This document shows positions 23,764 through 36,221 of a stretch of 36,481 bases of DNA, piece after piece. This DNA comes from Spirochaetales bacterium. Its GTDB lineage: Bacteria > Spirochaetota > Spirochaetia > Treponematales > Treponemataceae. Below the pieces are notes generated by a model, which did not search any database, was not told where the DNA came from, and worked only from the letters and a program-made list of their open reading frames with translations. Each line of letters opens with the position of its first letter. Position 1 is the first letter of the stretch. Location: contig QKCE01000279.1 in NCBI GenBank assembly GCA_003245785.1, positions 1 to 36,481 on the forward strand, in the 5' to 3' direction. The translations under genes were made by a program, and so were the position numbers.

Positions 23764-25494
23764 ATGAAGAACAGAATATTGACGCTGCTGTTGCTTACCG
23801 GAATTTGCGCGTCTTCTTTCGCCCAGATCCGCGACTATATTTACGTCGTGCGGCCCGCGTACGACGCGAAGGTCCTCTCCATCTTCGAGTCGACCGCCGA
23901 CGCCATGGAGAAGAACGGGATCAAGGACGCCGCGGAATACGTGCGTAAGTCCAAGGACGGCGGATTCGGTTCCGGCTTCCTGATTACCGCGTCGAACGGG
24001 CGCAATTACGTGGTCACTAACCGCCACGTGGTGGTCGACGCCTCGGAAGCGACCCTCGAGATCGAAAGCGCCGACGGCGCGACGACCAAGATCAGCGGGG
24101 CCAAGGTCATCGCGGTGGACGACGAGGTGGACCTCGCGCTCATCGAGCTGCCCGAGGGCACCCCGGTCCGCAAGGGGCTTCAGTTCGCCCCGGCCAAGGC
24201 GAAGGACGGCGACGACGTCCTGTCCGCGGGCTATCCCGGGCTCGGAAACAAGCCCTCCTGGCAGCTCGGCAAGGGCTCGATCACCAACGCGTCCGCGCGG
24301 GTGGGCGAGCTCGTCGACACGGAACGCACCACCCTTATCCAGCATTCGGCCCAGGTCGACCCGGGCAACTCGGGCGGCCCGCTTCTCATCCCGAACGCCG
24401 CCGGCCGCGAAGGCTACTACGTGCTCGGCGTGAACACCTGGAAGGCCAGCTCCCGCCAGGCCGCCAACTTCGCGATTCCCGCGGCGGCCGTGCAGGCCTT
24501 CGTGGAGCGCGTCATTTCTTCCCAGGGAGTCGACAAGGCATCCGCCGCCCTCGCCGTCCGGGGCAAGGATTTCTCCGTTACCAGCGCCATAGACAACGAG
24601 GACGACCCGATGGAACGCTCCCGGAGAATCGCCCGGTACGTCTCCCTCGATTACGTTTCCTCCTACGGGACGAAGGCGCTCCTGAACGCGTATTCCTCGG
24701 CGCCCACCGTGGCGATCCGCGAGATCATGGGAACCCTGGTGGACCTTTCCCCCATAGAGGGAATGCGCCTCGCCATCGCCTACGAAATCGACGGGAAGCT
24801 CAGGGACGGCGATACCCTTCTCACCCTCGCCGCGCCTACCGCCCCGACAGTAACCTCCGGCGGGAAGGAAGGGACCATGAGCTTCGGCTCGGACAAGCTC
24901 GGCCCGGTGGAGACGAAGTGGGTAATGGAAGCCGCCAACTGGCGCCTCGACTGGTTCATGAAGCAGTACCAGGCGGAAGAAAAGACCGATTCCAAGGGCA
25001 CCTCGAAAGTGACCCTCGAGCCGCCCTATTACGGGATGCTGTACGCGGCGGTAAACCTGCAGGAAACCCCCGGTACCACCTTTGTCGGCGGAATGGAAGG
25101 GAACGGCCACTACTTCGGCCTCGGCATGGAAGTCGGCGGCGGGCTCATCAATATAGAGGCCGACCCGGCCGATCCCTACTCCGAGGACTCGAGCGCCCTC
25201 CTCGTGAAAATGGCGGGCTTCCTGCGGCTCCAATTCCCCGTCTCCATGGATCCCGTATCCTTCGTCCCCTACGTCGACCTCTCCGGCGGAATGCAGATCA
25301 GCGTCGGCTCGTTCGACGGCTATAACGGGCTCTATTCCAGTTACGGCGCGGGCCTGAACCTCTGCTTCGGCGGGGACCTGGTCACCATAGTCGGCATCGA
25401 GGTTGGCCGCGAAGGTTCCTCCGGGATGTTCGACGCCAGCGGCGCGTACGACGTTACCTACGTGACCCTGAGCGTCGGGTTCGGCGCCAAATAA
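23764..25494 (+). CDS. Secreted trypsin-like serine protease with C-terminal barrel-like domain
   Basis: Signal peptide MKNRILTLLLLTGICASSFAQ; triad motifs VTNRHVV, DEVDLALIEL, VDPGNSGGPLL; C-terminus is an alternating glycine/aromatic beta-rich region ending VTYVTLSVGFGAK. Confidence 0.8.
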   Translation: MKNRILTLLLLTGICASSFAQIRDYIYVVRPAYDAKVLSIFESTADAMEKNGIKDAAEYVRKSKDGGFGSGFLITASNGRNYVVTNRHVVVDASEATLEIESADGATTKISGAKVIAVDDEVDLALIELPEGTPVRKGLQFAPAKAKDGDDVLSAGYPGLGNKPSWQLGKGSITNASARVGELVDTERTTLIQHSAQVDPGNSGGPLLIPNAAGREGYYVLGVNTWKASSRQAANFAIPAAAVQAFVERVISSQGVDKASAALAVRGKDFSVTSAIDNEDDPMERSRRIARYVSLDYVSSYGTKALLNAYSSAPTVAIREIMGTLVDLSPIEGMRLAIAYEIDGKLRDGDTLLTLAAPTAPTVTSGGKEGTMSFGSDKLGPVETKWVMEAANWRLDWFMKQYQAEEKTDSKGTSKVTLEPPYYGMLYAAVNLQETPGTTFVGGMEGNGHYFGLGMEVGGGLINIEADPADPYSEDSSALLVKMAGFLRLQFPVSMDPVSFVPYVDLSGGMQISVGSFDGYNGLYSSYGAGLNLCFGGDLVTIVGIEVGREGSSGMFDASGAYDVTYVTLSVGFGAK

Positions 25495-25500
25495 CCGATC

Positions 25501-26154
25501 ATGAAAGAAAACATACATAAGAGAACAAGGAGGACTATCGTGAAGAAATGGAGAGCGGGCGCGGCCTTGACCGCGCTCATCGGCATCGCGGCGATCGGGT
25601 TCGGCTCATGCTCGACCCTTACCGCCGGCACGCCTTCGCTGAACGACAAACTCGTGAAAAAGGCGGACTTCGCCGGGCCTGAGGACAGTACCCTCGTGTA
25701 CGGCTTCGTCGGCATGCCCGGCTTCCTGTCCACCGCGCAAATCCCGACCACCGAATTCGCGCAGATCAATCCCGCCGTCGAGCCTGCGCTGCTGTCCCCG
25801 GGAAAGATGGGAACCTTCTTCTACTTCCAGCCGGTGCCGAAGGGTTCCGAGCTCCACCTGGTATACTATTCGTATACCTCGGGAAGGACCACCTATTATT
25901 CCTACGAGGGAATCCAGAAGGGCCTCGACCTCGACATCCAGACCGAAAAGGCCGGGCTGCATTACGCGGGGAGCTACCTGCTGACTTCGCTGGAGAAGGG
26001 CGGATTCTTCAGCATGCCGAAAGATTACGGCTTCCACCCCACCGGGAAGGAAACCGAGCTTGACGCGCTGAAGAAGCTTCTTTCCAAATTCAAGGGGACC
26101 GCGTGGGAACCCGTGATCCTCGCGCGCATGGAGGAACTCAATGAAACCAAATAA
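25501..26154 (+). CDS. Predicted lipoprotein of unknown function
   Basis: Lipobox-like IGFGSCSTLTAG; start may be 25501 or the internal GTG at ~25540; immediately follows the protease gene. Confidence 0.65.
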   Translation: MKENIHKRTRRTIVKKWRAGAALTALIGIAAIGFGSCSTLTAGTPSLNDKLVKKADFAGPEDSTLVYGFVGMPGFLSTAQIPTTEFAQINPAVEPALLSPGKMGTFFYFQPVPKGSELHLVYYSYTSGRTTYYSYEGIQKGLDLDIQTEKAGLHYAGSYLLTSLEKGGFFSMPKDYGFHPTGKETELDALKKLLSKFKGTAWEPVILARMEELNETK

Positions 26155-26752
26155 GGCATTCCTCGCGGGCCTCCTGGCCCTCTCCTGCCTCGTCGCGGCT
26201 TTCGGCGCGGACAAGTACGACAAGCCCCGCGAAAAGGAAGTCGTCGTCGTGGGCAGGGTCATCCTCGATCCCCCGGTGGACGAGCGATTCTTTTCCAAGT
26301 TCTGGTTCCTGGATTCCCGTTACCTGACGATCAAGCCGGACAAGGGAGTCAAGGAGGGCGACGTGGTCCCCTCCGCGGCGAACATGATCTTCGCCTCTTC
26401 CGGTTTCTCCAACAACCAGATAGGGACGACGAACGCGAACGACGTCATCAGCGGCAAGATCAATATCCCCAAGGACCGGGTCGTCACGCTCCTGAACTTC
26501 GAATACCTTCCCGCGGGCTTCTACCTTTTCAGGATTTACCTCCCGGTTTTCGTGGAGTTCACCGTGCCTGACAATACCAACTACGTGTACGTGGGTACCC
26601 TCAAGTACGTCCGGAAGGGGAACCAGTACGAGCTGGTAAGCGCCACCCGGGTCGACGAGTTCGACGCCGCCCAGGCAGCGGTCAAGGAACGCTACGGGGC
26701 CGACGCCAAGCTCGTCCGCGTGCCCCTGCGGGACATGGAAGAAAAGAAATAA
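26141..26752 (+). CDS. Secreted protein of unknown function
   Basis: Signal peptide MKPNKAFLAGLLALSCLVAAFGA; overlaps the preceding gene by 14 bp. Confidence 0.7.
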   Translation: MKPNKAFLAGLLALSCLVAAFGADKYDKPREKEVVVVGRVILDPPVDERFFSKFWFLDSRYLTIKPDKGVKEGDVVPSAANMIFASSGFSNNQIGTTNANDVISGKINIPKDRVVTLLNFEYLPAGFYLFRIYLPVFVEFTVPDNTNYVYVGTLKYVRKGNQYELVSATRVDEFDAAQAAVKERYGADAKLVRVPLRDMEEKK

Positions 26753-26974: not shown

Positions 26975-29029
26975 ATGGCGCGACGAAAACGAATACCGAA
27001 AAATATACTTCTCCTGTTGTGCGCCCTCCTCGCGGCGCGCTCGCCTTCGCCGGTCGGCGCGCTGCCATCGGACGGAACCGCCGGCACTTCCGCCTTTGAA
27101 TTCGTCGACCAGGATATCGGCGAGATTCTTTACGCGATCTCGCTCAACAGAAAGGTCCCGATCGTCCCGGACTCGACGGTAACCGGCCGCGCGAGTTTCC
27201 GGTTCGCGGGCGGCGATTTCGAGTCCGCGTTCGGCGCCTTCCTGGGCATAAACGGGCTGTACGCCGACCGGGCCGAGGCGGTTTGGACGGTCTCGAGAAT
27301 TCGGTTAGTCCGGAACGGCGACGGTGCCTTGGAGCTTGACGCCAACGACGTATACCTCGCTCAAATTCTCGATCGTCTCTCGGCCTTCACGGGCCGCGCG
27401 ATCGTCCGGGATCTCCTGCCCTCCGGACGGGTGTCGATTCATTTGTCCGGGGCCGGCCTCGCGGAAACCCTCTCGATCCTGATGCGGCCCTACGCGGAAT
27501 ACGCCGTGGCGGACTCGGGCAACTTTTTCGAGATCCGTAGAAATTCCGCGCGGGATTCAACCCCCGCGCCTTCCCCGACGAACGCGCCCGCGGCGCCGTC
27601 CGTGCGGGCATCAGGCGGGCTTTATTCCTTCAGCGGCGAGCGATTCAGGATCGGCGACGCCCTCGACGCGCTCTTCGGCGCCGCGGGCATCGAGTATTCC
27701 TCCTTCGTGCGGGGCGACGGAATCGTCGAACGGCTTTCCTTCAGTGACAAGTCCTTCGACGAGGCCCTCGGTTTGCTGCTCGATCAGGCCAACGCGGAAG
27801 CCGTGAGGTCCGCGAATATATGGTGCATCCTTCCGGGGCAACAATCGGAAATCGCCAAAAGGCTTCGGAACGGCGACAGGGACTGGGTGAGATTCCCCCT
27901 CAAATTCGCCAACTATGCCCAGGTGCAGCCCGTCCTTCTCGCGCGGTATCCCGCCCTCGCGGCGGTACCGCTCCCGGGGGGAGACGGCTTTTTCGCGAGG
28001 GTGACCGAGGCGGAGCGCGCCGATCTCGTTCGCTGCCTCGACGCCGTCGACGCCAAGGGCTTTCGCGGCGAGGTGCGTCTCAAGTACATCAAGAGCGAGG
28101 AGCTCCTGAAAAACCCGCCGCCCTCGGTAACGCGGGAAAACCTCGTGGACGCGGGGGACGGAAACGCCCTCTTTTTCGTCGGGAGCCGCGAGCGGTACGC
28201 GGAATTCGCGAAAGACCTGGAAACCCTCGACCGGCCCAGGGCCCGCATCAGGTACGACCTTCTCATCATGCAGTATCAGGATTCCTCTGACCTCAAGTGG
28301 GGCTTCGCCGCCTCCGCCCGCCGTCTCGCGCCCGGGGACCAAACCATGGTCACCGGGAGTTTCGGCAATATCCTCAAGCTGAACTTCGACGTGATCACGG
28401 TGCTCGGGTATCAGTTCGCGGCGCAGCTCGACACGGCGATCGCCGAAAACCGGGCGAGCGTGTTCGCCGACACCACGCTCTACGGCCTCTCGGGCCAGGA
28501 CATAAAATTCCAGAACACGAACACCTATCGATACCGCGACTACTACATCGATTCGCAGACCAAGGAGACCGTCTACACCGGCGTGACCAGGGAAATCACC
28601 TCCGGTTTGGTCCTAGACGTGAACGGCTGGGTATCGGGAGACGGGATGATTACGACCGCGGTGAACGCCTCGGTGTCTAAGCGCGGCGTCGACGTGTCGA
28701 GCGGGGTGGGCAATCCGCCGCCGACCTCGGAGAAGACGATCTCGACCCAGGTCCGCTCGCGCTCCGGCGAGACGGTCGTGCTCAGCGGCTTGAGGCAGGA
28801 CGACTCTACCCTCGTCGAGGAGCGCGTGCCGTTCATTTCGCGGATTCCCCTCATCGGCTGGCTTTTCAGGAACCGCGACGAGTCCAGGGAAAAGTCCCAG
28901 ACGGTAATCTACCTGATTCCCCGCGTGGACCTCGGATCCGACGAGTACGGCCAGGAAGGGCGCAGGACCGAATCGGCCTACGAGCGGCTGGTCCGTCCGT
29001 ACCTGGGAGGCCAAGATGACCGGCCTTGA
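26975..29029 (+). CDS. Type II/IV secretion-family secretin (GspD/PilQ-like)
   Basis: Signal peptide; N-domain FEFVDQDIGEILYAISLNRKVPIV; C-terminal secretin signature ERVPFISRIPLIGWLFRNRDESREKSQTVIYLIPRV. Confidence 0.92.
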   Translation: MARRKRIPKNILLLLCALLAARSPSPVGALPSDGTAGTSAFEFVDQDIGEILYAISLNRKVPIVPDSTVTGRASFRFAGGDFESAFGAFLGINGLYADRAEAVWTVSRIRLVRNGDGALELDANDVYLAQILDRLSAFTGRAIVRDLLPSGRVSIHLSGAGLAETLSILMRPYAEYAVADSGNFFEIRRNSARDSTPAPSPTNAPAAPSVRASGGLYSFSGERFRIGDALDALFGAAGIEYSSFVRGDGIVERLSFSDKSFDEALGLLLDQANAEAVRSANIWCILPGQQSEIAKRLRNGDRDWVRFPLKFANYAQVQPVLLARYPALAAVPLPGGDGFFARVTEAERADLVRCLDAVDAKGFRGEVRLKYIKSEELLKNPPPSVTRENLVDAGDGNALFFVGSRERYAEFAKDLETLDRPRARIRYDLLIMQYQDSSDLKWGFAASARRLAPGDQTMVTGSFGNILKLNFDVITVLGYQFAAQLDTAIAENRASVFADTTLYGLSGQDIKFQNTNTYRYRDYYIDSQTKETVYTGVTREITSGLVLDVNGWVSGDGMITTAVNASVSKRGVDVSSGVGNPPPTSEKTISTQVRSRSGETVVLSGLRQDDSTLVEERVPFISRIPLIGWLFRNRDESREKSQTVIYLIPRVDLGSDEYGQEGRRTESAYERLVRPYLGGQDDRP

Positions 29030-30410
29030 GCGCTCCGCCGTTTCGCTGAGTCCCGCGTTCTGCGCCCACAACGGCGTACTCCTCCTTCCCTCGAGCGATG
29101 GCGAAGTGTGCCTCGGCATGCTGGATATCGACGACCTGCCCTTGCGGGGGCGAATCGAGCGGGAATGGCCCGGCTCGCGGTTCAGTTACTCGCCCCTTGG
29201 CAGGGACGAGTTCGCCCTCGCCCTGAGCCGACTCTTCGCGGAGGATCGCGCGGAAGGCGGGGACGACGGCAGCGGGATGACGGCCTGCGACCGGCGCGAC
29301 GGCGGCTCGGCGATCGACCGCGTCGAACGGGACGCGCCAATCGTGAATCTCCTCAATTCGATATTCCTGGAAGCCTCTTCCCTCGGCGCGTCGGACATTC
29401 ACCTCGAGTCCGAGGCAAGCCACGTCGCCGTGCGGTACCGGGTGGACGGTCGGCTCAGGACGATGGCGAGGCTTTCGCCGGACCGGGGCGATGCCCTTTC
29501 GACCCGGCTCAAGCACCTCGCGAACCTCAATATCGTCGAGCGCCGACGGCCCCAGGACGGGAGGCTGAACGTCGCGGGGGCCGGCCGCGCGCTGGACGTG
29601 CGGGTTTCCTTCGCGCCGACGGTCCGGGGCGAGTCCGTCGTGCTGCGCCTCCTCGATTCGGGGAACGCGGCGCTCGACCTCGATTCCCTCGGCTATTCCA
29701 CCCGGGAGCTCGCGCGCCTCCGCGGCGCCGTCGCTTCCGGTTCGGGACTCGTCCTGGTCTCCGGCCCCACCGGTTCGGGGAAGACCACGACCCTATCGGC
29801 GATTCTCCGGGAGCTGGCGAGCGACGAGCTCAAAATCGTCTCGATCGAGGATCCCGTCGAGTACCGGCTCGCGGGGGTTACGCAGATCCAGACCGACGAA
29901 GGACTCGCGCTCACCTTTGAATCGCTCCTTCGCCGGGTGTTCCGGCAGGACCCCGACGTCGTGATGATCGGCGAGATCCGCGACGGCCAGACCGCCCGGC
30001 TCGCCGCGAGGGCAGCGCTCACGGGGCATCTCGTGTTCGCCACCGTCCACGCGACCGGCGCGCTGGAGGCGATTCCCCGGTTAATGGACCTCGGCGTCGA
30101 ACCCTATCTCGTCGCGGCCACCCTCAGGCTGTCGGTCGCCCAGAGGCTCCTGCGGAGGCGCTGCGCCCCCTGCGGCGGGACGGGTTGCCCGGCTTGCGGG
30201 GGAACCGGCTACGCCGGACGCGTCGCGGTATCGGAATCCTTCGGGATCGATCGGGACGCGAGGGGGGCTATCGAGTCCGCCCGGCCCGCTGAGCGTTTGG
30301 AAGCCCTGGCGCGCAGGGGCGGGTTCAGGACGATGAGGGAAGACGCGGCGGAAAAGATTCGAGCCGGGATCACGGACGAGGGCGAGGCCCGGCGGGAGAT
30401 AGGCCCGTGA
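29016..30410 (+). CDS. Type II secretion ATPase (GspE family)
   Basis: GASDIHLESEASHVAVRYRVDGRL, Walker A GPTGSGKTTTLSAIL, Asp box SIEDPVEYRL, Walker B QDPDVVMIGEIRD, His box TGHLVFATVHA. Confidence 0.95.
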   Translation: MTGLERSAVSLSPAFCAHNGVLLLPSSDGEVCLGMLDIDDLPLRGRIEREWPGSRFSYSPLGRDEFALALSRLFAEDRAEGGDDGSGMTACDRRDGGSAIDRVERDAPIVNLLNSIFLEASSLGASDIHLESEASHVAVRYRVDGRLRTMARLSPDRGDALSTRLKHLANLNIVERRRPQDGRLNVAGAGRALDVRVSFAPTVRGESVVLRLLDSGNAALDLDSLGYSTRELARLRGAVASGSGLVLVSGPTGSGKTTTLSAILRELASDELKIVSIEDPVEYRLAGVTQIQTDEGLALTFESLLRRVFRQDPDVVMIGEIRDGQTARLAARAALTGHLVFATVHATGALEAIPRLMDLGVEPYLVAATLRLSVAQRLLRRRCAPCGGTGCPACGGTGYAGRVAVSESFGIDRDARGAIESARPAERLEALARRGGFRTMREDAAEKIRAGITDEGEARREIGP

Positions 30411-31375
30411 GCGGCGCGGTGCGAGGGAACGTGGGGCGGTTCACCTCGATGGCCCGGTCTCTTCTCGATTCGGGATACGGCCTGAACGACGCCCTGAGGC
30501 TGCTCTCCCGTGGCGACGTGTCTCCCGGCGCGCGGGATATCGCCGCGGCCCTCGCCGCCGAGATACGCCGGGGCAGGGGCTTTTCGCAAGCCCTCGCCGC
30601 CTTGCGTACCCCGGGGGGCGGAAGGGTCTTTCCGGAGGAATACGCGCTCCGCGTGGCGGGAGGCGAAAGGTCCGGCGATCTCGCGGGGGCGTTCGCCCGG
30701 CTGGACGACGGTTACTCGGAGCGGAAGAAGGCGAGGGAGAGACTCGTCTCGGCGCTCGTCTATCCCGCCTTCATCGTGGCGGTCTCGGGGGCGGGAACCG
30801 TCGCTGTCCTCGCGAGGGCCGTCCCGTACCTTCTCGCCATGGGATACCTCGACGCGGCGTCCCGCTCGGGAATCGTCTCGGGGCTCGTCGCGGCCTGGGC
30901 CGCGCTTCTCGTCCTTTCCGCTGCTTTTTCGGTCGCCGCCTGGCGGCTCGTCGGGAGGGCGTCGGGCGAATCCCTCGCTTTCGCCGTGCTGGAGGATTAC
31001 GCCGCGGCGGGATTGCCCCTCGGGGACGCGCTCCTCCTTTGCGTCCGGGAACTTGGCCCGACGCCGCTCGCCGCGGCACTCGCCGGTATACGAAGGGCCG
31101 TCGCGTCGGGGCGTCCCCTGGCCCTCGCCTTTCGAGACGCGGGCCGGTTTCCCGCCTCGGTGACCGACCTCCTCCTCATGGGCGGCGAGTCGGGCGACGC
31201 GGGGAAGATGTTCGCGGGGGCGGCCCGCCACTACGCGGAGCGGGACAGGCGAAGGCGCGAGTACGCGCTTCGGGCGAGCGAACCGGCGGCGATCGCGATC
31301 GTCGGCGTCTACCTCGCCATCGCGCTCGAATCGGTCGTAATCCCGCTGTTGACGGGTATAGGGGGAATTCCATGA
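30407..31375 (+). CDS. Type II secretion inner-membrane platform protein (GspF family)
   Basis: Two GspF-type repeats (FTSMARSLLDSGYGLNDALRLL; DYAAAGLPLGDALLLCVREL) and TM segments; ATGA overlap with gspE-like gene. Confidence 0.88.
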   Translation: MSGAVRGNVGRFTSMARSLLDSGYGLNDALRLLSRGDVSPGARDIAAALAAEIRRGRGFSQALAALRTPGGGRVFPEEYALRVAGGERSGDLAGAFARLDDGYSERKKARERLVSALVYPAFIVAVSGAGTVAVLARAVPYLLAMGYLDAASRSGIVSGLVAAWAALLVLSAAFSVAAWRLVGRASGESLAFAVLEDYAAAGLPLGDALLLCVRELGPTPLAAALAGIRRAVASGRPLALAFRDAGRFPASVTDLLLMGGESGDAGKMFAGAARHYAERDRRRREYALRASEPAAIAIVGVYLAIALESVVIPLLTGIGGIP

Positions 31376-31800
31376 AGGGAAGAAACGAAGAGGGTTTCAC
31401 GTTCATCGAGACGGTAATCGTCATCGCGATCATCCTCATCCTTTCCGCGGGAGTCGGGTTTTCGGCGATGAAGTACGTCGACAGGGCGCGGGTCGCCTCG
31501 GCGCGCAACCAGATATCGGCCTACAAGCTCGCGCTCGAGTCGTACTACCTCGACTGCGGCCGTTACCCTTCCGCCGGGCAGGGGCTCGTCGCGCTGTGGG
31601 AAAAGCCCGCCTTGAGCCCGGTGCCAGAGTCCTGGGCCGGTCCGTACGTGGACCGGGAAGTCGCCGGGGACCCTTGGGGCCGTCCTTTCGAGTATTCGGC
31701 GCCGGGAGAAAACGGGCTTCCTTTCGGGATCCTTTCGCTCGGGGCGGACGGTCTTCGGGGCGGGGAGGGAAATGATGCGGACGTCGCTTCGTGGAAATAG
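31372..31800 (+). CDS. Major pseudopilin (GspG family)
   Basis: Prepilin motif EEG|FTFIETVIVIAIILIL; LALESYYLDCGRYPSAGQGLVAL and DPWGRPFEY are GspG hallmarks. Confidence 0.93.
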   Translation: MKGRNEEGFTFIETVIVIAIILILSAGVGFSAMKYVDRARVASARNQISAYKLALESYYLDCGRYPSAGQGLVALWEKPALSPVPESWAGPYVDREVAGDPWGRPFEYSAPGENGLPFGILSLGADGLRGGEGNDADVASWK

Positions 31801-31978
31801 CGAGGGCTTTTGCCTGCTGTACGCCGTCTTGGCGATCTTCCTTTTCTCGCTCCTTTTCGTTCCGTTCTCGGAAGCCGCGTCGGCCCGGGCGAGGCTCGCG
31901 GAAAGGACGAGGTCCGCGGTTCTGTCCGCGAACGAACTGGCTAACGGGGAGGTCGTAAACCGCCATGACGTTCACTGA
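31772..31978 (+). CDS. Short minor-pseudopilin-like ORF lacking Glu5
   Basis: MMRTSLRGNSEG|FCLLYAVLAIFLFSLLFV: leader plus hydrophobic helix; position 5 is Tyr. Overlaps flanking genes; 68 aa. Confidence 0.6.
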   Translation: MMRTSLRGNSEGFCLLYAVLAIFLFSLLFVPFSEAASARARLAERTRSAVLSANELANGEVVNRHDVH

Positions 31979-32303
31979 GCTTGGCGCCGCCGTCCTGATA
32001 CTCGCGCTCTTTTTCGCGGGCCTCTCGTCCGCGGCGGCCCCGGCGGCGAGACTGTACGCAGGATCGTGCCGTTCGCTCCGCGAGGCAAGGGAGCTTTCCT
32101 TCGTGATCGAGAGCTTTCGCGCGGAGTGCCGGTCCGGGGATGCCGATTTCGCGGAATGGAAGCGCGCCGTATCCGTCGTCGACGGGGTGAAGGGGATCGA
32201 AATCTCCGCTTTGGAAACCGGCGACGGCACGGGGGCGTGGCGGCTCTCCTGCGAGGCTTACGGCGTTCCGCTGGAAGTGTTGGCCGCGGGAGCCTGCGAA
32301 TGA
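31965..32303 (+). CDS. Leaderless pseudopilin-like protein
   Basis: MTFTELGAAVLILALFFAGLSS, with Glu at residue 5 counted from Met1; in-frame TAA three codons upstream precludes a longer leader. Confidence 0.6.
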   Translation: MTFTELGAAVLILALFFAGLSSAAAPAARLYAGSCRSLREARELSFVIESFRAECRSGDADFAEWKRAVSVVDGVKGIEISALETGDGTGAWRLSCEAYGVPLEVLAAGACE

Positions 32304-33604
32304 AAGGATACGCGATACCCCGCGGTGATTTCGAAAGCTACTTTCTCAGGGCCGAACCGGGAACTCCCCCGAGGGGAAAGGCTTTCCGCGGGTGGGTCCG
32401 GTCGGAACTGGAAAAGCTGCATCCGGGCTTCGGGGAGTCCCACGCGGCGGACGTCAAGAAATTGCGCGTGCCGGGCGGGTCATGGTATCTCGCCACCGTG
32501 ATGAGGCAAGAGGTCCTGGCGGAACACCGGGCGTTGGCCCGTCGCGCGCCTCTCGTCGCGGCGGAATGGTACGTCCTGGACGCGGAGGGCGCGCCGACGC
32601 TCCCGACGGGCGAAAGTCACGGACCTAAAAGGGCTTCGCGGCTCGGTCCCTCGTTCGCGAAGCGTCCCGGACGCGCGGCCGCATACGTTTCCCTCGCCGC
32701 GCTTCTTTTCGCGGCCTGCGCTCTCGCCCTGCCGCGCCCCGGGCGCGCGACGGCCGGTTCCCCGGTCTCTCCTTCCGGGGTCGTGATCGAGACGGAACGC
32801 GCGCCCCCTCTCCCCGACGCCGCGGACCTATTTGCCCTGATCGCCTCCCGCATCGCTGACACGGGCGCGACGGTATCGGACATGGAGGTTTCGTCTCGGG
32901 AGAGCCCTCCCGTGAGGATTTCCGTCGGCGGGAAGGGCCCCTCCGCCGTCATGGCTTCCCTGGAGGGCGCGGTTCCCCTGGACGCGGGTTCGTTCGGTCC
33001 GGTCTCTTTTTCGGGGAACGTCCCGCGGTATTCCCTGTCCTACGGATTCTCCGGGAACGGGATATCCCCTCCGACGGAGGGCGTGGCCCCCTCGTCGGCC
33101 CTTGCGTTCTTGTCGCGGGCCGCGGAATCGCTAACCGCTTCCGGGGGGACCCTCGAAGCCGCGCGGCTCGGTGGAGACGACGGGGATCGGGCTCTCTTTA
33201 TCGAAGCCGCCGCGCCCCTTAGTCGCTCGGGTTCGGTACTGCTCGGGTTAACCGAAACGGCCAAAGCCTCCGGACTGGTCGTCGTTTCGGCCTTCGCGGA
33301 GGCCGGGGGGCAGGATGGCGTCCTGAGACTCAGGTTGAGCCTTCGGACGGCGTTGACCATTGGCGGAAACCCCGAGGAAGGCGCGGATTCCGGCGACTTC
33401 GGTCCCATCGAGGCCCGCTATGCCGACGTACCGCGGGCTTTCGGGTTTTTCGCCGCCGCTCCATCGTCGCAAACCACTTTACCAGGGAAAGGTACCGGGC
33501 CGGAAAGCGGATGGGCTGCCATCGGCACGATCGTCGACGCCCGGGGAAGGCGGGTCGTCTATTACAGGGATTCGGGAGGAAAGATCCATGAAATCGAAAA
33601 TTGA
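32300..33604 (+). CDS. Bitopic membrane protein, possible GspL/GspM functional analogue
   Basis: Cytoplasmic ~125 aa, one TM (AAAYVSLAALLFAACALAL), long periplasmic region; ATGA overlap and position after pseudopilins. No clear sequence similarity recognised. Confidence 0.6.
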   Translation: MKGYAIPRGDFESYFLRAEPGTPPRGKAFRGWVRSELEKLHPGFGESHAADVKKLRVPGGSWYLATVMRQEVLAEHRALARRAPLVAAEWYVLDAEGAPTLPTGESHGPKRASRLGPSFAKRPGRAAAYVSLAALLFAACALALPRPGRATAGSPVSPSGVVIETERAPPLPDAADLFALIASRIADTGATVSDMEVSSRESPPVRISVGGKGPSAVMASLEGAVPLDAGSFGPVSFSGNVPRYSLSYGFSGNGISPPTEGVAPSSALAFLSRAAESLTASGGTLEAARLGGDDGDRALFIEAAAPLSRSGSVLLGLTETAKASGLVVVSAFAEAGGQDGVLRLRLSLRTALTIGGNPEEGADSGDFGPIEARYADVPRAFGFFAAAPSSQTTLPGKGTGPESGWAAIGTIVDARGRRVVYYRDSGGKIHEIEN

Positions 33605-34187
33605 ATCGGCGTTACCATACGCGCCCCTGGCGCTCTTGGCGCTCCTGGCTTCCTGCTCGACCTTCGGGTTTTCCCCGGGCAGGTTCGACGTGCGCGGCAT
33701 GGTGTACGACTTCGAAAACCGCCCGGTCGCGAAATACGAGGTTTCCCTCGACGGGAAGGCCAAGGCGGTTACCGACGTGACGGGCCGTTACGTCCTGCCA
33801 TTGGTCTCCCCGGGGCGTTACCGGCTCACCGGGGAGGGCAAGTGTTTCGAGCGTTACGAGGCCCCGGCGGAAATCCTTTCCGGAAACGACGTCCAGTACC
33901 TTCGGGTCGTCTCGGCGGAGGAACTGCTCGAGCTTGCCGACGGGGCGCTTTCTCGGGGCGACCTTGACCGGGCTGCCGAATACGTATCCCGGGCGGAAAA
34001 AACCGGAAGCGAGTCCCCCCTCATTCCCTTTTATTCCGCGGTGACGCTCTTTCGGAAGGGAAAGCCCGGGGATGCCCTCGCCGTTCTCGAATCGTTAGCG
34101 GCGAAGGGTTTCGACGATCCCTGGGTGGAGGCGATGGCGGGTGACATGAGGGCCCTCGCGCAGGGGGAAAACGATGTCGATGAATGA
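33588..34187 (+). CDS. Lipoprotein with carboxypeptidase-regulatory-like domain and TPR-like region
   Basis: Lipobox ALLASC; VRGMVYDFENRPVAKYEVSLDGKAKAVTDVTGRYVLPLVSPGRYRL; helical repeat LADGALSRGDLDRAAEYVSRAEK. Confidence 0.7.
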   Translation: MKSKIESALPYAPLALLALLASCSTFGFSPGRFDVRGMVYDFENRPVAKYEVSLDGKAKAVTDVTGRYVLPLVSPGRYRLTGEGKCFERYEAPAEILSGNDVQYLRVVSAEELLELADGALSRGDLDRAAEYVSRAEKTGSESPLIPFYSAVTLFRKGKPGDALAVLESLAAKGFDDPWVEAMAGDMRALAQGENDVDE

Positions 34188-34644
34188 TCGCCCCGTCGCC
34201 GCGGCGGCTTTTTTGCTTTCGCTCGCCGTCGGGCTTCTCGCGTCATGCGACCTTCAGCCGGATTCTTTTCCGCCCTTCGTTCTGGGGAAACCCGAATGCG
34301 TGATCGGCGAGCGGCCCGGCTATTACCTCGTCGCGGGCATCGAATTCGAATTCGCGAACACCTCGGGAAAATCGATCCGCTCCCTCTCGGTATCGGCCAT
34401 GGTATACGACCGGGAGACGGAGTCGAATCCTTTCGTCGGGTCGAACCGGATCGAGGGCCTGTTCGCGGGGGACATCCCCGGCAAGTCAAAGATCGACGCG
34501 GCGATACCCCTCGATTCCTATATATACGTCGCGCCGAGCGAGCCGTACATCGTCGACTTTTTTTACGTCTCGGCGATCGAGTATTCCGACGGCACGAGCT
34601 GGGCTGACCCGAACGGCGCCTATTGCACCGGGAGCGAGCCATGA
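34174..34644 (+). CDS. Small predicted lipoprotein
   Basis: Lipobox VGLLASCD; overlaps preceding gene by 14 bp. Confidence 0.65.
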   Translation: MSMNDRPVAAAAFLLSLAVGLLASCDLQPDSFPPFVLGKPECVIGERPGYYLVAGIEFEFANTSGKSIRSLSVSAMVYDRETESNPFVGSNRIEGLFAGDIPGKSKIDAAIPLDSYIYVAPSEPYIVDFFYVSAIEYSDGTSWADPNGAYCTGSEP

Positions 34645-36221
34645 TCGGGAGGGATAAAAACAAGCGCATCGCCATTTTCGCCCTACGCGCGGCCGCCTGC
34701 GCGCTTCCCCTTTTGGCGCTTCCCTGTTCCTGCCTGCAAGGGATTCCCGCCGCGGGGATTCTCGAGATTACCGAAGGCATCTACAGCCTCACGGTAAACG
34801 ACGGGGTGAACGGGACGGTAACCGTCGAGCCGGAAAAGGAGCTCTACGCGGAAAACGAGACGGTTCGCCTTACGGCCGCGCCCGCGGCGGGATACGTGTT
34901 CTGCGGCTGGAACGGCGACGTCGATGACGGGGAGTCGGCGGCCATGGAGATCGTGATGAACGGGAACAAGTCCGTCGGCGCGGACTTTTCCGCCCGCGGA
35001 TGGACGCATCTCGTGTATATGGCGGCGGATAACGATCTCGACGACGAGGCCCTGAACGACCTGAACGAAATGGAAGCCGCCGATACCGGCGGGAAGGCAA
35101 TGACGATACTCGCGCTGGTTGACCGCAAGGCGGGAAACGGCGACTGGCCGGACACTCGCCTGTACGAGATCGCCCATGATCCCGGCGGGAACTCGGCCTC
35201 CATCGTATCGTCGAGGCTCGCCTCGCCGGAGCTTGGCCTTTCGGCCGACGTCCCGGGCGAGCTCGATCTTTCCGATCCCGTCACCCTGGAACGCTTCATC
35301 GCCTACGCGGTCCGCGCGTATCCCGCCGCGCGGTATTCCCTGACGGTCTGGGGCCACGGTACGGGCTGGCGCGGCGACGGCGATGCCTCGACCGACGGCT
35401 CAATCCCGATGAAGGCGGTCGCCGTCGACGAAACCTCGGGGTCCTACATGACGATCGCCCTCCTCGGGGAAGCCCTACGAGACCGCGGCATAAGCGTCAT
35501 CGGCTTCGATACCTGTTTCGGGGCGCTCCTCGAAGTCGCCTACGAGCTGCGGGACGCGGGCGAATACCTGGTGGGTTCCGAGGGACCGACGAAAGATTCC
35601 GGCTGGGATTACGCGACGCTCTTTTCTTCGGTCGACGGCTCGACGACCGCCACTTCGCTTGCCGACGCCGTGGCGGATCAGTTCAAGGCCGGGTACGCCG
35701 GGACCGCCAACGCGACGGTCTCCGTGATTCGCCTCGCGGAAATGGGGGCCTTGCAGGCGGACTTCGACTCATGGGCGACCGCGCTCGCCATGCGGATCGA
35801 TGCCGCCGAAAAGAGAGATGCCCTGAGATCGGCCCTTTTCGATTCGTCCCGAATCGACGCGTTCTGGTATCCCGGAACTTCGAGCGACTACTACGTGGAC
35901 GTATCAAGCCTCGTATCCCTCGCAAACGAAACCATCGACGACGACGGCCTGATCGCGGCGTCGGCGGAACTCCTCGAGACCCTGGACGGGGCCGTTCCCC
36001 GGACCTGGTCGGACGAATACGCGGAATCGGCCCGGCAAATCGGGGTGTTCCTGATCGGCGTAAACGATTCCAAGGTGCCGGCCTCGACCCACAGCCCCGC
36101 GTATACCCAAGGGAGCGGGGCGGACTGCGGCGCCTTCGTGAACGATACCGGGGGCTGGGTGCCGAACGCCGATCCGGACGCGGTAAGCGCGCTCAACAGG
36201 ATTTTTTACTCCGTATTCTGA
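34641..36221 (+). CDS. Clostripain-family (C11) cysteine protease with N-terminal bacterial repeat domain
   Basis: LVYMAADNDLDDEALNDLNEME, SLTVWGHGTGW (catalytic His), VIGFDTCFGALLEVAYEL (catalytic Cys); N-terminal GTVTVEPEKELYAENETVRLTAAPAAGYVFCGWNGD repeat; signal/lipobox-like LPCSC. Confidence 0.88.
   Translation: MIGRDKNKRIAIFALRAAACALPLLALPCSCLQGIPAAGILEITEGIYSLTVNDGVNGTVTVEPEKELYAENETVRLTAAPAAGYVFCGWNGDVDDGESAAMEIVMNGNKSVGADFSARGWTHLVYMAADNDLDDEALNDLNEMEAADTGGKAMTILALVDRKAGNGDWPDTRLYEIAHDPGGNSASIVSSRLASPELGLSADVPGELDLSDPVTLERFIAYAVRAYPAARYSLTVWGHGTGWRGDGDASTDGSIPMKAVAVDETSGSYMTIALLGEALRDRGISVIGFDTCFGALLEVAYELRDAGEYLVGSEGPTKDSGWDYATLFSSVDGSTTATSLADAVADQFKAGYAGTANATVSVIRLAEMGALQADFDSWATALAMRIDAAEKRDALRSALFDSSRIDAFWYPGTSSDYYVDVSSLVSLANETIDDDGLIAASAELLETLDGAVPRTWSDEYAESARQIGVFLIGVNDSKVPASTHSPAYTQGSGADCGAFVNDTGGWVPNADPDAVSALNRIFYSVF

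What the first reader, a model, noticed from the sequence alone, without database searches (positions are those of the whole stretch)
26975..34187. Compact, divergent type II secretion-like cluster
Sequence shows secretin, GspE, GspF and GspG homologues in a tightly overlapping operon, but no recognisable GspC, GspK, GspL, GspM or prepilin peptidase. Instead there are two aberrant pseudopilin-like ORFs, one bitopic protein and lipoproteins. Established knowledge: classical T2SS needs C, L, M and H-K. Inference: a minimal or alternative T2SS in which novel proteins replace the platform/tip components.
Basis: partly seen in the sequence, partly recalled or inferred. Interest (0 to 1): 0.75.

Follow-up and report, generated by a model that had tools for sequence, protein, structure and literature searches.

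The report
Stripped-down spirochaete protein secretion machine
Many treponeme-like spirochaetes carry a shrunken type II secretion machine in which three platform proteins are fused into one and a tip subunit is encoded already 'trimmed', without the leader that is normally cut off, next to a protein-cutting enzyme that is probably its cargo.

Summary
Ten overlapping genes (window 26975-36221) encode GspD, GspE, GspF, GspG, two tiny pseudopilins, one bitopic protein, two lipoproteins and a clostripain-family peptidase. Profile-profile comparison shows that the bitopic protein is GspL, GspM and GspC fused and shortened. AlphaFold plus Foldseek supports the PilM/GspL and PilO/GspM domains. The 68-aa ORF is a headless GspI that has lost Glu5. 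The 112-aa ORF is a GspJ without a leader peptide: in 24 of 24 loci a start codon occupies mature position +1, with Glu/Asp at +5. In all 18 full-system GspJ compared, +1 is Phe, Tyr or Ser. GspK is gone, and no GspH gene is seen. The cluster is not a decayed copy: it recurs in the same order across Treponematales (69 of 384 genomes) and its GspE forms one lineage (100/99 support). The same genome also has a fuller T2SS with separate I, J, K, L, M and C genes. The most likely function is a dedicated exporter of the co-encoded clostripain lipoprotein; that step is inferred. New variant of a known kind.

The parts
26975..29029 (+). GspD secretin with STN-like N domain
   Evidence: PF00263 E=3.3e-28; orthologues in the same place in relatives
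29016..30410 (+). GspE ATPase with a shortened tetracysteine motif (CAPCGGTGCPAC)
   Evidence: PF00437 5.4e-107; TIGR02533 best NCBIfam hit; motif compared with full systems; tree
30407..31375 (+). GspF platform protein lacking about 66 N-terminal residues (322 aa against about 400)
   Evidence: PF00482 3.9e-36; TIGR02120 match starts at profile position 67; 400-aa GspF on C103
31372..31800 (+). GspG major pseudopilin, ordinary leader and cleavage site (MKGRNEEG|FTFIE)
   Evidence: TIGR01710 above cut-off
31772..31978 (+). Headless GspI (68 aa): cleavable leader ...GNSEG|F kept, Glu5 lost, no globular head
   Evidence: mini-I against full-system GspI profile E=3.2e-7, next best 2e-3; hit to C103 GspI; weak ComGG hit in NCBIfam
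31965..32303 (+). GspJ without leader peptide: starts M1-T-F-T-E5; in-frame stop just upstream, only two codons between
   Evidence: mini-J against full-system GspJ E=5.7e-8, aligned residue 2 to residue 2; 24/24 loci with a start codon at +1; AlphaFold long helix plus three-stranded sheet, pLDDT 83.6
32300..33604 (+). GspL-GspM-GspC fusion: short PilM/GspL-like N domain, one TM helix, two ferredoxin-like domains, GspC-HR-like tail
   Evidence: hhalign against full fused LMC 3.5e-13, GspL 2.1e-10, M-C fusion 9.2e-10, GspC 1.3e-5; AlphaFold and Foldseek
33588..34187 (+). CarboxypepD_reg + TPR lipoprotein, shared with the full T2SS
   Evidence: PF13620 3.4e-8; homologue in the same place on C103 and in full systems
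34174..34644 (+). Small lipoprotein specific to the mini-system
   Evidence: alignment A1, invariant columns; same place in about 20 loci; no convincing Pfam family
34641..36221 (+). Clostripain-family (C11) peptidase with InlB B-repeats; probable exported cargo
   Evidence: PF03415 2.9e-36, PF18998 2e-14; TIGR02806 6e-18; catalytic His and Cys present

Best explanation
The cluster is a lineage-specific, reduced type II secretion system of Treponematales. Shown by sequence: GspD, E, F and G are kept; GspL, M and C are one shortened protein; GspI is headless and lacks Glu5; GspJ has no leader peptide; GspK is absent and no GspH gene is seen. Inferred mechanism: the prepilin peptidase processes GspG and GspI. 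GspJ is inserted directly with its initiator methionine standing where a processed pilin's first residue would be, on the cytoplasmic face, so it needs no processing. GspI takes GspK's place as the cap, because the top subunit has no neighbour above and needs no Glu5; GspJ follows, then GspG. GspE, GspF and the GspLMC fusion drive a short pseudopilus into the secretin, and the HR-like tail of the fusion contacts the secretin's N domain. The main cargo is probably the co-encoded clostripain-like peptidase, usually a lipoprotein, placed on the cell surface, with the two other lipoproteins as accessories.
For: Core families. Colinear order with the full C103 system and with about 20 other mini loci. 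Full systems show the steps of fusion: L/M/C separate; M-C fused (256-285 aa); L-M-C fused (547-590 aa) with GspK still present. Profile matches of the mini fusion to L, M, C and fused LMC. AlphaFold gives two alpha-beta-beta-alpha-beta-beta domains; Foldseek hits PilM (prob 0.97-1.00), PilO (0.97) and the periplasmic domain of PulL (0.95). I and J each match their own full-system counterpart best; J has a start codon at +1 in 24/24 and E/D at +5 in 24/24 against F/Y/S at +1 in 18/18 full J; I has no acid at +5 in 18/18. Mini GspE is one side of a branch (100/99). The peptidase gene closes nearly every mini cluster, catalytic dyad kept in 21 of 23, and is absent beside the full clusters inspected. 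Cap subunits lack Glu5 and leaders end in Gly/Ala (PMC10191384). T2SSs can export surface lipoproteins (PMC12802150).
Against: No function has been tested anywhere for this cluster. No Foldseek match reaches E<=0.001, and the J model found no pilin in the PDB. The M part of the fusion is weak alone (3.6e-4). The own assembly has no prepilin peptidase, so processing of G and I in this organism is not shown. Three related loci lack I and J entirely, so those subunits are not always needed. The window's own peptidase has a less clear lipobox than most relatives.
Confidence: 0.74

Rival explanations
1. It is a decaying duplicate of the genome's full T2SS, on the way to loss.
For: A fuller system exists on contig C103; GspF, GspE, GspI and GspJ are all shorter than in full systems.
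Against: All ORFs are intact and overlapping; the order is kept in about 20 loci and the fusion in 69/384 genomes; the mini lineage is one well-supported branch, not a recent copy; most relatives with it have no GspK-bearing full system (compare).
Confidence: 0.05
2. It is not for secretion but builds a type IV pilus-like or DNA-uptake filament.
For: The secretin scores slightly better to PilQ than to GspD in NCBIfam, both far below cut-off; minor pilins are unusual.
Against: The major subunit passes the GspG-specific cut-off; the own genome has only two PF00437 proteins, both GspE, so no PilT was found; a C11 peptidase and lipoproteins are co-conserved, not competence genes.
Confidence: 0.1
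3. The clostripain-like protein is not cargo but processes or releases the real substrates, for instance RHS proteins encoded next to several clusters.
For: RHS-repeat proteins adjoin the cluster in L012, L013, L014, L016 and L106; clostripains are implicated in processing of surface proteins (PMC3482391).
Against: The peptidase is almost always present while RHS neighbours are not; two loci keep the gene with a broken active site.
Confidence: 0.25
4. GspJ is translated from an upstream non-standard start and does have a leader.
For: In some loci the frame stays open upstream (L012, L013, L016); L013 has a Gly at -1.
Against: Seven loci, the window included, have an in-frame stop 0-3 codons upstream; Gly or Ala at -1 in only 2 of 24; a start codon at exactly +1 in 24 of 24.
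Confidence: 0.05

Closest known systems
Canonical T2SS (e.g. Klebsiella Pul, Vibrio Eps; TXSScan model)
   Same: GspD, E, F, G homologues; platform domains of L, M and C; I and J pseudopilins; operon layout
   Different: L, M and C fused and shortened; no H or K; headless I without Glu5; J without leader; GspF and GspE trimmed; three lipoproteins built into the operon
Full T2SS of the same spirochaetes (contig C103; L104, L109, L125-L142)
   Same: Colinear genes, headless GspI, the same CarboxypepD/TPR lipoprotein; in some members M-C or L-M-C already fused
   Different: GspK present, GspJ with ordinary leader, larger GspL, no small lipoprotein or clostripain gene beside it
Chlamydial T2SS
   Same: Reported to lack minor pilins and GspL/M (PMC6668835)
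   Different: There the parts seem absent; here L, M, C, I and J are still identifiable in altered form
T2SS export of surface lipoproteins (PulA; Acinetobacter InvL with GspN, PMC12802150)
   Same: Lipoprotein cargo is plausible here
   Different: No GspN found in the cluster; the cargo is a peptidase encoded in the operon itself
Clostripain / C11 peptidases (PF03415)
   Same: Fold family and His/Cys dyad
   Different: Fused to InlB B-repeats, mostly lipoproteins, tied to a secretion operon

Membership tests
Type II secretion system | Secretin GspD | tested here: met
   PF00263 3.3e-28
Type II secretion system | Assembly ATPase GspE | tested here: met
   PF00437 5.4e-107; best NCBIfam TIGR02533, below its equivalog cut-off
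Type II secretion system | Platform protein GspF | tested here: met
   PF00482 3.9e-36; N-terminal part missing
Type II secretion system | Major pseudopilin GspG | tested here: met
   TIGR01710 131.1 bits, cut-off 88.85
Type II secretion system | Minor pseudopilins I and J | tested here: met
   Profile-profile E=3.2e-7 and 5.7e-8 to full-system I and J; both structurally altered
Type II secretion system | Minor pseudopilin K (and H) | tested here: not met
   GspK profile finds only C103 in this genome; the G-to-LMC interval has room only for I and J
Type II secretion system | GspL, GspM, GspC as separate proteins | tested here: not met
   One fused protein; homology itself is met
Type II secretion system | Prepilin peptidase | tested here: inconclusive
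   None in the 84%-complete assembly; near gspD in G005, G106, G186, G208 and G287, elsewhere in G284
[quoted passage not shown]
   Needs deletion and secretome or surface proteomics
Type IV pilus / competence pilus | Retraction ATPase PilT | tested here: not met
   Only two PF00437 proteins in the (incomplete) genome, both in gsp clusters
Clostripain family C11 | PF03415 domain with catalytic His and Cys | tested here: met
   E=2.9e-36; WGHGTGW and GFDTCFG motifs

The most novel reading that the evidence does not exclude
A type II secretion system has been reduced to about seven machine proteins (D, E, F, G, headless I, leaderless J and one L-M-C fusion; in some relatives only five). It uses a pseudopilin that is genetically pre-processed, so that the tip forms without prepilin peptidase acting on GspJ, and a headless GspI replaces GspK as cap. 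The machine is dedicated to one family of surface peptidase lipoproteins.
Probability: 0.55. Interest if true: 0.75.

Novelty: new variant of a known kind. Interest (0 to 1): 0.62.

Why it matters
It shows which parts of a T2SS can be merged, trimmed or dropped while the operon stays conserved, and it supplies a natural minimal machine for reconstitution. The leaderless GspJ bears on an open question: whether cleavage by prepilin peptidase matters for the cut itself or only for the free N-terminus at the right place. It also points to a surface-protease export route in treponemes, whose outer-membrane export is poorly understood.

Tried and rejected
Pfam and NCBIfam on the bitopic protein and GspJ gave nothing. 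hhalign with only two or three full-system sequences was too weak; it became decisive once 13 L, 8 M, 9 C, 6 M-C and 6 L-M-C sequences were collected. Foldseek on the GspJ model returned unspecific hits, so its pilin fold rests on the profile match and on the predicted topology. The small ORF at 31772 was first taken for GspK because it lacks Glu5; comparison showed that it matches GspI (3.2e-7) and not GspK (0.1). Literature searches for a leaderless pseudopilin, fused GspL/M/C, or clostripain with T2SS in spirochaetes found no report in the open-access library searched; subscription papers were not covered. Denise 2019 notes T2SS in Spirochaetes without these details.

Full report
What is there. 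The window is one whole contig (C135) of a 3.3-Mb, 84%-complete assembly. Its named relatives are spirochaete MAGs: two Spirochaetales isolates (SZUA-438, SZUA-475), Treponema and Spirochaetaceae MAGs, and a Spirochaetia bacterium. Ten genes on the + strand, 26975-36221, each overlap the next. Gene calls come, domain calls. The order is gspD, gspE, gspF, gspG, a 68-aa ORF, a 112-aa ORF, a 434-aa bitopic protein, a CarboxypepD/TPR lipoprotein, a small lipoprotein and a clostripain-family peptidase.

A second T2SS in the same genome. Contig C103 carries gspD, E, F, G, I, J, K, L, M, a 160-aa GspC-like gene and a homologue of the same TPR lipoprotein. Of the C103 I-to-C proteins scanned, Pfam recognises only M, weakly. 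The two clusters are colinear, which gives the key to the small ORFs in the window: I and J sit between G and the platform genes in both, and K is missing from the window.

The cluster is conserved. Searching with the bitopic protein and then with its profile gave the same gene order in other genomes. The final profile (27 sequences) found it in 69 of 384 genomes of the order and 47 of 198 good ones. In a spread over the phylum it found 7 of 198, only two of them outside the order and weak. Genomes that have only the full system (G248, G344) give no match, so the profile is specific. In G005, G186 and G208, D and E lie apart from the G-to-lipoprotein block. On a tree of 44 GspE sequences the mini-systems are one side of a branch (100/99; 100% of bootstrap trees), so one origin fits, with the root unknown.

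The bitopic protein is GspL-GspM-GspC. Full systems found through GspK fall into three forms: L, M and C separate; L plus fused M-C of 256-285 aa; and fused L-M-C of 547-590 aa, the last still with GspK and ordinary GspJ. The full fused form matches separate L, M and C at 2.6e-29, 2.1e-12 and 6.3e-11. The mini protein (27 sequences) matches the full fused form over 386 columns (3.5e-13), GspL over its first half (2.1e-10), M-C over its second half (9.2e-10) and GspC at its last 34 residues (1.3e-5). These E-values are for single comparisons. AlphaFold on six sequences (pLDDT 70.7) gives a short alpha/beta N domain, one membrane helix at 126-141, two alpha-beta-beta-alpha-beta-beta domains and three C-terminal strands. 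Foldseek's T2SS/T4P-related hits are PilM, PilO, the periplasmic domain of PulL and that of EpsL, at probabilities of 0.75-1.00 for the best chain of each but E-values above 0.001. The actin-like part of GspL is mostly gone.

The two small pseudopilins. The 112-aa family matches full GspJ (5.7e-8) better than I, G or K; the 68-aa family matches full GspI (3.2e-7) better than the rest. In GspJ the alignment pairs residue 2 with mature residue 2, so the initiator Met is at +1. Over 24 mini loci +1 is ATG in 23 and TTG in one, and +5 is Glu (17) or Asp (7). The residue before it is Gly or Ala in only 2, and an in-frame stop lies 0-3 codons upstream in 7, the window included. The ATG overlaps the stop codon of gspI in the window and its closest relatives. 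In all 18 full-system GspJ, +1 is Phe, Tyr or Ser with a normal leader. GspI is the mirror image: it mostly keeps its cleavage Gly but has no acidic residue at +5 in 18 of 18 mini loci, whereas most full GspI have one and the L-M-C-fused group has Lys or Arg. A review states that leaders end in Gly or Ala, that the peptidase works on the cytoplasmic face, that Glu5 binds the N-terminal amine of the subunit above, and that the cap lacks Glu5 (PMC10191384). From this I infer that GspI has become the cap in place of GspK and that GspJ is encoded in the mature form. Three loci have gone further and lost I and J.

Other trimming. GspF lacks its N-terminal domain. The zinc-binding loop of GspE is shortened in the window group and its motif lost in most others.

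Cargo. The last gene encodes a C11 peptidase with InlB repeats; the His and Cys are kept in 21 of 23 complete sequences and most have a lipobox. It and the small lipoprotein go with the mini-system and were not seen beside the full systems inspected. Export of lipoproteins by T2SSs is known (PMC12802150). That the peptidase is the cargo is inference.

Prepilin peptidase. None is found in the assembly. In G106, G287, G186, G208 and G005 it lies near gspD; in the closest relative G284 it stands apart. I take its absence here to be an assembly gap, since GspG and GspI keep cleavage sites.

Verdict. A real, conserved, lineage-specific reduced T2SS: a new variant of a known kind. The architecture is well supported; the mechanism of tip assembly and the cargo are inferred.

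Noticed in passing
L012 3-1541, L013 2-1141, L014 15091-16356, L016 3-5513, L106 19320-20000: RHS-repeat type proteins lie next to the mini-T2SS in several genomes and may be further substrates.
   Followed up: no
L085, L087, L088 (G237-C14, G131, G372): GspI and GspJ are absent: from the GspG stop to the start of the LMC fusion there are 0, 14 and 235 nt, so D, E, F, G and LMC alone remain.
   Followed up: partly
L016 5553-8018 and L090 12966-14294: The clostripain-like protein has lost a catalytic residue (Cys to Gly; His lost), suggesting an inactive surface protein in these genomes.
   Followed up: partly
L104, L132, L138, L140, L141, L142: Full T2SSs with GspK and an ordinary GspJ carry their own 547-590 aa GspL-M-C fusion; the fusion may have arisen more than once.
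   Followed up: partly
window 23764-25494, 25501-26154, 26141-26752: A trypsin-like secreted protein and two lipoprotein-like ORFs lie just upstream on the same strand.
   Followed up: no
L013 1159-1713, L015 13588-14130: A TlpA-like thioredoxin gene beside the cluster.
   Followed up: no
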